A stretch of DNA of 32,536 nt from assembly GCA_023475235.1 (NCBI GenBank), contig JAMCWG010000030.1:1-32536 (forward strand), written 5' to 3'. A model generated the notes under the pieces. The model ran no database searches. It had not been told where the DNA came from and saw only the letters and a program-made list of their open reading frames with translations. The DNA comes from Chloroflexota bacterium. GTDB taxonomy: Bacteria; Chloroflexota; UBA6077; FW602-bin22; JAMCWG01. Of this stretch, positions 21,377 to 22,717 are shown piece by piece. The position numbers were made by a program, and so were the translations under genes. Numbering within the stretch: the first letter of the stretch is position 1; each line of letters opens with the position of its first letter.

Positions 21377-21412
21377 GCTATTATTGCTTGCATAGCTATT
21401 ATTGCCTGCATA
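21377..21412. repeat. Tandem 18-base direct repeat
   Basis: GCTATTATTGCTTGCATA (21377-21394) is followed directly by a copy differing at one base (21395-21412). It lies about 135 bases upstream of the SDH_sah cassette and could be an operator or a junction relic. Confidence 0.6.
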
Positions 21413-21547
21413 TTGGGCGAACGTTGAACCACGTGTGACCTCACGTATTGCATTTCAGCCTTAGAAGCGCAATAATCTGCGCGTGTTTAGCCTGGGATGA
21501 ATACCAAGCATCGCTGGACGATTCAGATTCGCTCTTGGGAGTAAGCG

Positions 21548-22444
21548 ATGGCAGAGGAACTGCGAAGTCCAGTCATTCAACGGGTTTTGGCAGAACAGAA
21601 ACAAGGGCATGAGACGCGACAAGGGCTCTTCAGGAGTCTAGAAGAGCAGCTCGGTCGGCCAGTCGTTTCGTTCTTTACGAGCTTCCGGTTCCCTGTTATG
21701 ATTGAAGACGCGGATGCTGATATGCTGGAGGGCGTCTTACAGAAATTGGACTTGTCAAATGGGCTGGCTCTGCTCATAAGTTCGCCCGGCGGAGATGGAC
21801 TTGCCGCCGAGCGCATAATCAATGTTTGTAGAAGCTATAGTAGGACAGGTGAGTACTGGGCAATTGTTCCTGCAAAAGCGAAATCTGCCGCCACGATGAT
21901 ATGTTTCGGTGCAAGCAAGATCATTATGGGTGCGACTTCTGAACTTGGGCCTATCGACCCTCAAGTGGCTGCACCGGACGATGCCACGTTGAGGATATTT
22001 TCCGTTTTCAACATCGTTAAGAGTTACGAGGACTTGTTCTCACAAGCTGTGAAGGAGAAAGGTAACCTAGAGCCATATCTCCAGCAGCTTTCCAATTACG
22101 ATGCACGAGAGATCAAAGAGTTCAGGGCTGCCCTGTCATTGTCTGAAGACATCGCGATTAGGACTTTGGCTTCGGGTATGATGAGAGACATGTCTGAGAA
22201 GGACATCAAGGACAAGATAAAGATATTCCTTACACCGGAACGAACGAAGACCCACGGAAGACCTATCTACGCGAAAGAGGCCGCAGATTGTTGCTTGGAG
22301 ATAGAACTAAAGGACGTGACGGATAGATTCTGGGAAGTGGTCTACGAATTGAACATCCGCACGAGCAGTTTTGTATCTGGCGAGGCCACGAAATGCATCG
22401 AAAGCAAGAACCATTCGTTCTTTGCCTCGGCAAGGAGGAGCTGA
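21548..22444 (+). CDS. SDH_sah family (ClpP/SppA-fold) serine protease-like protein
   Basis: 298 residues. The crotonase/ClpP-like core is visible: LALLISSPGGDGLAAERII (about 73-91, oxyanion-hole glycines), WAIVPAKAKSAATMICFGASKI with predicted nucleophile S113, and MGATSELGPIDPQV (127-140), the typical SDH_sah/S49 segment. Nearby lysines K110 and K112 could serve as general base, as in SppA, but this is not proven. No signal peptide or membrane helix, unlike SppA. GGGAG (21537-21541) supports ATG 21548. Base composition is visibly lower in G+C than flanking genes, with more AAA, AGA/AGG and ATA codons, which suggests recent acquisition. A small basic protein follows after two bases. Confidence 0.82.
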   Translation: MAEELRSPVIQRVLAEQKQGHETRQGLFRSLEEQLGRPVVSFFTSFRFPVMIEDADADMLEGVLQKLDLSNGLALLISSPGGDGLAAERIINVCRSYSRTGEYWAIVPAKAKSAATMICFGASKIIMGATSELGPIDPQVAAPDDATLRIFSVFNIVKSYEDLFSQAVKEKGNLEPYLQQLSNYDAREIKEFRAALSLSEDIAIRTLASGMMRDMSEKDIKDKIKIFLTPERTKTHGRPIYAKEAADCCLEIELKDVTDRFWEVVYELNIRTSSFVSGEATKCIESKNHSFFASARRS

Positions 22445-22446
22445 TC

Positions 22447-22632
22447 ATGGCCGCAGCTAAGAAGATGGCGAAATCAGGTGAAGCAGTGTTGGAGCATCAG
22501 AAACGAACTATTGATGCAAAGAAGAGCCTACGTAGAATGCAAGAGACAATCAAGCCATTCCTGAAGAAACGGAGAGTCACCGATCATTCCACAGCAGGAC
22601 AGTGGCGGGATACATCCAGCCTATACTCTTAG
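22447..22632 (+). CDS. Small basic protein paired with the SDH_sah protein
   Basis: 61 residues from ATG 22447 with a strong AAGGAGGAG site (22432-22440) six bases upstream, inside the end of the preceding gene; the gap after its TGA is two bases. The product is rich in Lys/Arg (about 15 of 61: KKMAKS, AKKSLRRM, FLKKRR), mostly helical in pattern, with a polar tail ending TSSLYS. No membrane segment and no family recognised. It could be a substrate, adaptor or inhibitor of the protease-like partner, or a nucleic-acid-binding peptide. Pairing is supported by spacing and shared base composition only. Confidence 0.7.
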   Translation: MAAAKKMAKSGEAVLEHQKRTIDAKKSLRRMQETIKPFLKKRRVTDHSTAGQWRDTSSLYS

Positions 22633-22670
22633 TCCAACAGTAGTTGTGTAGACGCAGGGCGAGTTTCGGG

Positions 22671-22717
22671 GAAGAATAGGGGCGGCAGGGCAGTGCCGTC
22701 CCTATTCTTCTCATTTT
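22671..22717 (+). terminator. Terminator of the SDH_sah cassette
   Basis: 16-base stem (22671-22686 with 22695-22710, one G-U pair), loop AGGGCAGT, then TCATTTT. The stem is nearly symmetric, so it may also stop the convergent aminotransferase transcript. Confidence 0.75.

What the first reader, a model, noticed from the sequence alone, without database searches (positions are those of the whole stretch)
21377..22717. Two-gene SDH_sah protease-like / small basic protein cassette of foreign composition
Seen: a cytosolic ClpP/SppA-fold protein with S113 in AKSAATM, a 61-residue Lys/Arg-rich protein two bases later with a very strong ribosome site, lower G+C than both flanks, tandem 18-base repeats upstream and a 16-bp stem terminator downstream. 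The unit looks self-contained and acquired. A protease-like enzyme tightly coupled to a small basic partner resembles toxin/antitoxin, adaptor or defence pairs. Inference: the small protein is its regulator or substrate; I know of no described system with this pairing.
Basis: partly seen in the sequence, partly recalled or inferred. Interest (0 to 1): 0.62.

Follow-up and report, generated by a model that had tools for sequence, protein, structure and literature searches.

The report
Mobile protease and small-partner gene pair
A gene for a ClpP-like protein-cutting enzyme travels between very different bacteria and archaea almost always together with one tiny gene, sometimes as cargo of jumping DNA, and this linked pair, for which no description was found, probably works as a toxin-and-controller or anti-virus unit.

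Summary
The window carries a 298-aa SDH-type Clp-fold serine protease (21548-22444) and, two bases later behind a strong ribosome site, a 61-aa basic protein (22447-22632), in the lowest-G+C stretch of the window (0.49 against 0.63). In a fully supported clade of related proteases from archaea and at least six bacterial phyla, the small gene lies behind the protease wherever the contig allows a check (12 of 14 further loci by profile, two more by weak resemblance), and its profile found no convincing copy without the protease in 333 genomes of one class. Ser113, Asp137 and His236 are conserved across 46 distant SDH proteins, so the enzyme is probably active. Two members lie inside IS1-family elements between terminal inverted repeats. 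Sister elements carry, in that slot, an HTH-peptidase pair matching PD-lambda-2B, a peptidase reported toxic unless its partner is present. Best reading: a mobile toxin/controller or abortive-infection pair with the protease as effector. Function is inferred, not shown. The small-protein family has no Pfam, NCBIfam or PADLOC match. The window copy itself has no transposon ends.

The parts
21377..21412 (.). two tandem 18-bp repeats (GCTATTATTGCTTGCATA / GCTATTATTGCCTGCATA) upstream of the pair; role unknown
21548..22444 (+). SDH-type Clp-fold serine protease, 298 aa; likely catalytic Ser113 (21884-21886), Asp137 (21956-21958), His236 (22253-22255)
   Evidence: PF01972 E 2.2e-10, above cut-off; model pLDDT 73, pTM 0.67; Foldseek ClpP/SppA; conservation in 46 proteins
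22432..22440 (+). strong ribosome-binding site AAGGAGGAG of the small gene, inside the end of the protease gene
22447..22632 (+). 61-aa basic partner (15 K+R, 6 D+E); conserved core A(K/E)(K/E)...I.PF.(K/R)(K/R)......G.W; invariant A24, P37, F38, G51, W53 in the 8-row alignment
22671..22710 (+). hairpin (17-nt arms, 94% complementary), possible terminator between convergent genes

Best explanation
A mobile two-gene module of the toxin-antitoxin / abortive-infection kind. The first gene makes a cytoplasmic ClpP-fold serine protease (Ser113, with His236 and Asp137 as likely partners). The second makes a small basic helical protein, co-translated with it, that binds the protease and controls it: it restrains it in normal growth and releases it on a trigger such as phage infection, or hands it its target. 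Shown: pair conservation, mobility, catalytic-site conservation, IS1 cargo status of two copies. Inferred: protease activity, partner binding, direction of control, trigger, defence role.
For: The small gene accompanies the protease in every clade member whose contig allows a check, overlapping or within about 20 bp of its stop in the intact loci measured. In 333 genomes of one class the small profile has strong hits only beside the protease. The pair-bearing clade is fully supported (100/99) and mixes archaea and bacteria; an archaeal copy is sister to a gammaproteobacterial one, 97/91. It is rare: 3 of 395, 3 of 394 and 3 of 341 genomes, seeds included. L003 and L008 carry it between IS1 terminal repeats with a transposase; they are not sisters in the tree. 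Sister IS1 elements L078-L080 carry an HTH-peptidase M78 protein plus a partner between the same kind of ends; the L079 protein matches PD-Lambda-2_B at 2e-49, a peptidase reported toxic alone and neutralised by its partner (PMC9519451). Some neighbours are MNT/HepT, HigBA and an Eco57I-type methylase. Distant SDH relatives sit in phages and at the end of ubiquitin-like operons.
Against: No PADLOC hit for either gene. Neighbours in the window and in several other loci are ordinary metabolic genes. The gene order is protease first. Broken copies (L002, L004, L009, L054, L056) all break the protease and keep the small frame, as expected for a costly effector, but gene length alone gives that with probability about 0.38. 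The fusion model shows no confident contact.
Confidence: 0.4

Rival explanations
1. A dedicated degradation pair: the small protein is an adaptor or activator that brings particular proteins to the protease, for regulation or quality control, without killing the cell.
For: SDH relatives on alphaproteobacterial plasmids end ubiquitin-like operons (multiubiquitin, E2, E1, DUF6527, protease), which suggests tag-directed proteolysis. Other SDH clades have different small genes next to the protease.
Against: Sporadic occurrence, frequent decay and IS cargo status are unusual for housekeeping proteolysis.
Confidence: 0.25
2. Reversed roles: the small basic protein is the toxin and the protease keeps it in check by cutting it.
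For: Small, basic, often strongly translated second gene. It diverges faster than the protease (22-42% against 59-73% identity to the window copy).
Against: Small frames stay intact in all five loci whose protease is broken, which a free toxin should not allow; these are metagenome assemblies, so some breaks may be errors.
Confidence: 0.12
3. Transposon cargo that serves the element itself, for example by controlling transposase level or countering host defence; solo copies such as the window's are remnants.
For: Two IS1-borne members that are not sisters, and a third IS1-borne SDH protease from a distant clade in L068.
Against: No IS1 ends at the window or at the other loci tested; the pair persists without a transposase in most loci.
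Confidence: 0.12

Closest known systems
SDH-type Clp-fold serine proteinase (Pfam PF01972 SDH_protease; NCBIfam NF047768)
   Same: Fold, PGG and (K/M)SA.T motifs; Ser, Asp and His at the same columns in 46 relatives
   Different: Matches NF047768 far below its equivalog cut-off (48.5 against 250 bits); a separate clade with its own small partner
phrog_11747 (phage protein family of unknown function)
   Same: Full-length match to the protease, E 1.1e-39
   Different: No phage or viral-contig copy of the close clade was found
PD-lambda-2 (HigB-like / Xre-peptidase / third component defence system)
   Same: A peptidase plus partner pair; a PD-lambda-2B-like protein with a ~150-aa partner occupies the passenger slot of sister IS1 elements
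   Different: Metallopeptidase with HTH domain, unrelated fold; partner unrelated; no HTH here
Bacterial multiubiquitin-E2-E1-DUF6527 operons with an SDH-like protease
   Same: Protease about 26-30% identical to the window protein
   Different: No ubiquitin-like, E1 or E2 gene beside the pair; different clade

Membership tests
SDH-type Clp-fold proteases (PF01972) | profile match above the curated cut-off | tested here: met
   40.5 bits against 31.3, residues 70-142
SDH-type Clp-fold proteases (PF01972) | nucleophile Ser plus conserved Asp and His | tested here: met
   S113 in 45 of 46, D137 and H236 in 46 of 46; Ser aligns with the SAGT serine of the 1510-N protease
SDH-type Clp-fold proteases (PF01972) | proteolytic activity | not testable with these tools
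   needs an enzyme assay
toxin-antitoxin / abortive-infection modules | compact two-gene operon with both genes conserved together | tested here: met
toxin-antitoxin / abortive-infection modules | sporadic, horizontally mobile distribution | tested here: met
toxin-antitoxin / abortive-infection modules | one product toxic, the other neutralises it | not testable with these tools
   needs expression tests
catalogued anti-phage systems (PADLOC-DB 2.0.0) | profile match | tested here: not met
   no family at E <= 1 for either protein
PD-lambda-2 | HTH-peptidase fusion with a HigB-like toxin | tested here: not met
   no such match for the pair
bacterial ubiquitin-like conjugation operon | ubiquitin-like, E1 or E2 gene adjacent | tested here: not met
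   immediate neighbours in the window are glutaredoxin, ferredoxin-thioredoxin reductase and an aminotransferase
IS1-family passenger cassette (window copy) | terminal inverted repeats and transposase around the pair | tested here: not met
   no inverted repeat above shuffled level, no IS1 end within 3 mismatches
IS1-family passenger cassette (L003, L008) | terminal inverted repeats and transposase around the pair | tested here: met

The most novel reading that the evidence does not exclude
A new class of toxin/controller or anti-phage module in which a ClpP-fold SDH protease is the effector and a small basic protein of a family not yet named is its dedicated controller, spread between archaea and bacteria partly as cargo of IS1-type transposons that carry interchangeable peptidase-plus-partner modules.
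Probability: 0.33. Interest if true: 0.72.

Novelty: new variant of a known kind. Interest (0 to 1): 0.52.

Why it matters
SDH-type proteases are widespread and poorly understood. A clade with one obligate small partner gives a direct handle on what switches such a protease on. The finding that IS1-type elements carry peptidase-plus-partner pairs in one slot, one kind of which resembles a proven phage-defence toxin, offers a cheap way to look for further unknown defence or addiction modules.

Tried and rejected
Transposon ends around the window pair: best inverted match 15 of 20, the same as shuffled. Other copies of the flanks in the genome: none apart from the hairpin matching itself. Empty site: five relatives keep the glutaredoxin / thioredoxin-reductase gene pair, but none has the aminotransferase next to it within the stretch read, so the insertion point could not be fixed. 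Viral contigs: three scans without a relative. Plasmids for the small protein: none. Rfam: none. Pup or ubiquitin-like tag for the small protein: rejected by eye, since there is no conserved GG(Q/E) end and no beta-grasp-like sequence. Co-fold through the in-frame L006 read-through fusion: small part mostly below pLDDT 50, because MAFFT would not place the small homologues on the fusion's tail and the tail was folded without them. The idea that inverted repeats in L002 flank the cassette as a transposon was dropped: a 1.13-kb insert with its own 33-nt ends (79% complementary) splits the protease there.

Full report
WHAT IS THERE. The window holds two tightly spaced genes on the + strand. The first (21548-22444) encodes 298 aa, matching only the Clp-fold SDH protease family in Pfam (PF01972, 2.2e-10). 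The second (22447-22632) encodes 61 aa with no Pfam, NCBIfam or PADLOC match and no convincing PHROG match. It starts two bases after the protease stop behind AAGGAGGAG. The pair is the lowest-G+C stretch of the window (0.49 against 0.63). The tandem 18-mers and the hairpin are real. The genome has no second copy of the pair.

THE SMALL GENE IS REAL AND BELONGS TO THE PROTEASE. Nine protease relatives at 59-74% identity were found in genomes of Desulfotomaculum, Argoarchaeum, Solirubrobacteraceae, Desulfobacterales, Methanosaeta, Ignavibacteria, KSB1 and Gammaproteobacteria, and five more in sampled genomes. A small frame with the same core (I.PF.KKR ... G.W) follows the protease in all but the one cut off by a contig end; in that genome (G107) it lies at the start of another contig. 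In L002 it follows the separated end of the split protease gene. Leave-one-out profiles find each of ten small proteins at E <= 1.1e-8 among 6382 frames. Searched through 16 genomes, the profile finds the small gene in 13 at E <= 1e-10, and everything else is at background. The two 49-51% members (L055, L059) have only weakly similar short frames at the same place. In 333 genomes of one class the only strong hits are next to the protease; two weak ones (about 1e-4) are partial matches inside longer frames and were not followed up.

THE ENZYME IS PROBABLY ACTIVE. The AlphaFold2 model (pLDDT 73, pTM 0.67) matches ClpP and SppA structures and viral proteins named serine dehydrogenase proteinase; TM-scores are modest (0.3-0.5), and the middle of the model is of low confidence. 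In an alignment of 46 SDH-type proteins G81, G82, D137 and H236 are invariant and S113 is lost only in L002, whose gene is split. S113 aligns with the serine of the SAGT motif in the 1510-N protease. The Ser/His/Asp assignment is an inference from conservation; the residue order (Ser, Asp, His) differs from that of ClpP (Ser, His, Asp; own knowledge).

IT MOVES. The pair-bearing proteases form one clade (100/99) in which archaeal and bacterial copies are mixed; the Methanosaeta copy is sister to the gammaproteobacterial one (97/91). Occurrence is sporadic (3 of 395, 3 of 394, 3 of 341 genomes, including the seeds); 100 relatives of the window's own genome hold only distant SDH proteins. L003 and L008 carry the pair inside IS1-family elements: 18-24-nt terminal inverted repeats, a small Lys/Arg-rich KGG-type protein, protease, partner, transposase. 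They are not sisters in the tree. A distant SDH protease in an Acidiphilium plasmid sits in a third such element. The window copy has no such ends.

WHAT ELSE FILLS THAT SLOT. Three sister IS1 elements on alphaproteobacterial plasmids (L078, L079, L080) carry between the same kind of ends an HTH-peptidase M78 protein plus a partner of 150-216 aa. The L079 protein matches PD-Lambda-2_B of PADLOC at 2.3e-49 and the L078 protein is closest to an antitoxin/repressor family, below its cut-off. PD-lambda-2B, an Xre-peptidase fusion, is toxic when expressed alone and is neutralised by its partner, in a system with abortive defence (PMC9519451). This slot-sharing is the best available clue to the role of the pair.

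NEIGHBOURS AND RELATIVES. Some members lie by known toxin-antitoxin or restriction genes: MNT/HepT (L001), HigBA and an Eco57I-type methylase (L054), and a GIY-YIG nuclease (L053). Others, the window included, lie among ordinary metabolic genes. Distant SDH relatives close multiubiquitin-E2-E1-DUF6527 operons on five plasmids (not every gene is listed in each record), sit in a Mu-like phage between the late-gene regulator and lysis genes and in lambdoid-like phage regions. Several have other, unrelated small genes next to them.

DECAY. Five of the fourteen further loci have a broken protease: an in-frame TAA (L004), an in-frame TGA (L054), frameshifts (L009), an ISL3 insertion (L056) and a 1.13-kb insert (L002). 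The small frame is intact in each. This fits a costly protease and a harmless partner, but gene length alone would give it with probability near 0.38, and assembly error cannot be excluded.

VERDICT. Confirmed observation; a conserved, horizontally mobile, two-gene module whose pairing I did not find described in a limited literature search. Most likely a toxin/controller or abortive-infection pair with the protease as effector (0.4), with a dedicated adaptor-protease pair as main rival (0.25).

Noticed in passing
L078 1055-5278, L079 1295-4666, L080 1276-4400, L068 2719-5352, L003 3288-5969, L008 3674-6062: A group of IS1-family elements with ends like GGTAGTGTCTCAGTTTGA that carry passenger genes: in five of the six a small KGG-type Lys/Arg-rich protein (not looked for in L080), plus either an HTH-M78 peptidase pair or an SDH protease.
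   Followed up: partly
L067, L071, L072, L073, L077: SDH-like protease as last gene of multiubiquitin-E2-E1(ThiF)-DUF6527 operons on alphaproteobacterial plasmids; PADLOC models E1-E2 match the ThiF protein but none matches the protease.
   Followed up: partly
L074 4334-4564, L077 4334-4540: Another small protein family (GYDL.P.F motif) directly downstream of a different SDH protease clade.
   Followed up: no
all SDH proteins (wide alignment): Invariant Asp137 and His236 suggest a Ser-Asp-His order of catalytic residues along the chain, unlike ClpP's Ser-His-Asp.
   Followed up: partly
L056 4711-5916: ISL3-family transposase inserted in the protease gene of an archaeal copy.
   Followed up: yes
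L002 3519-3593 and 4958-5032: 75-bp perfect inverted repeat, one arm upstream of the protease gene and one inside the insert that splits it, in Argoarchaeum.
   Followed up: no
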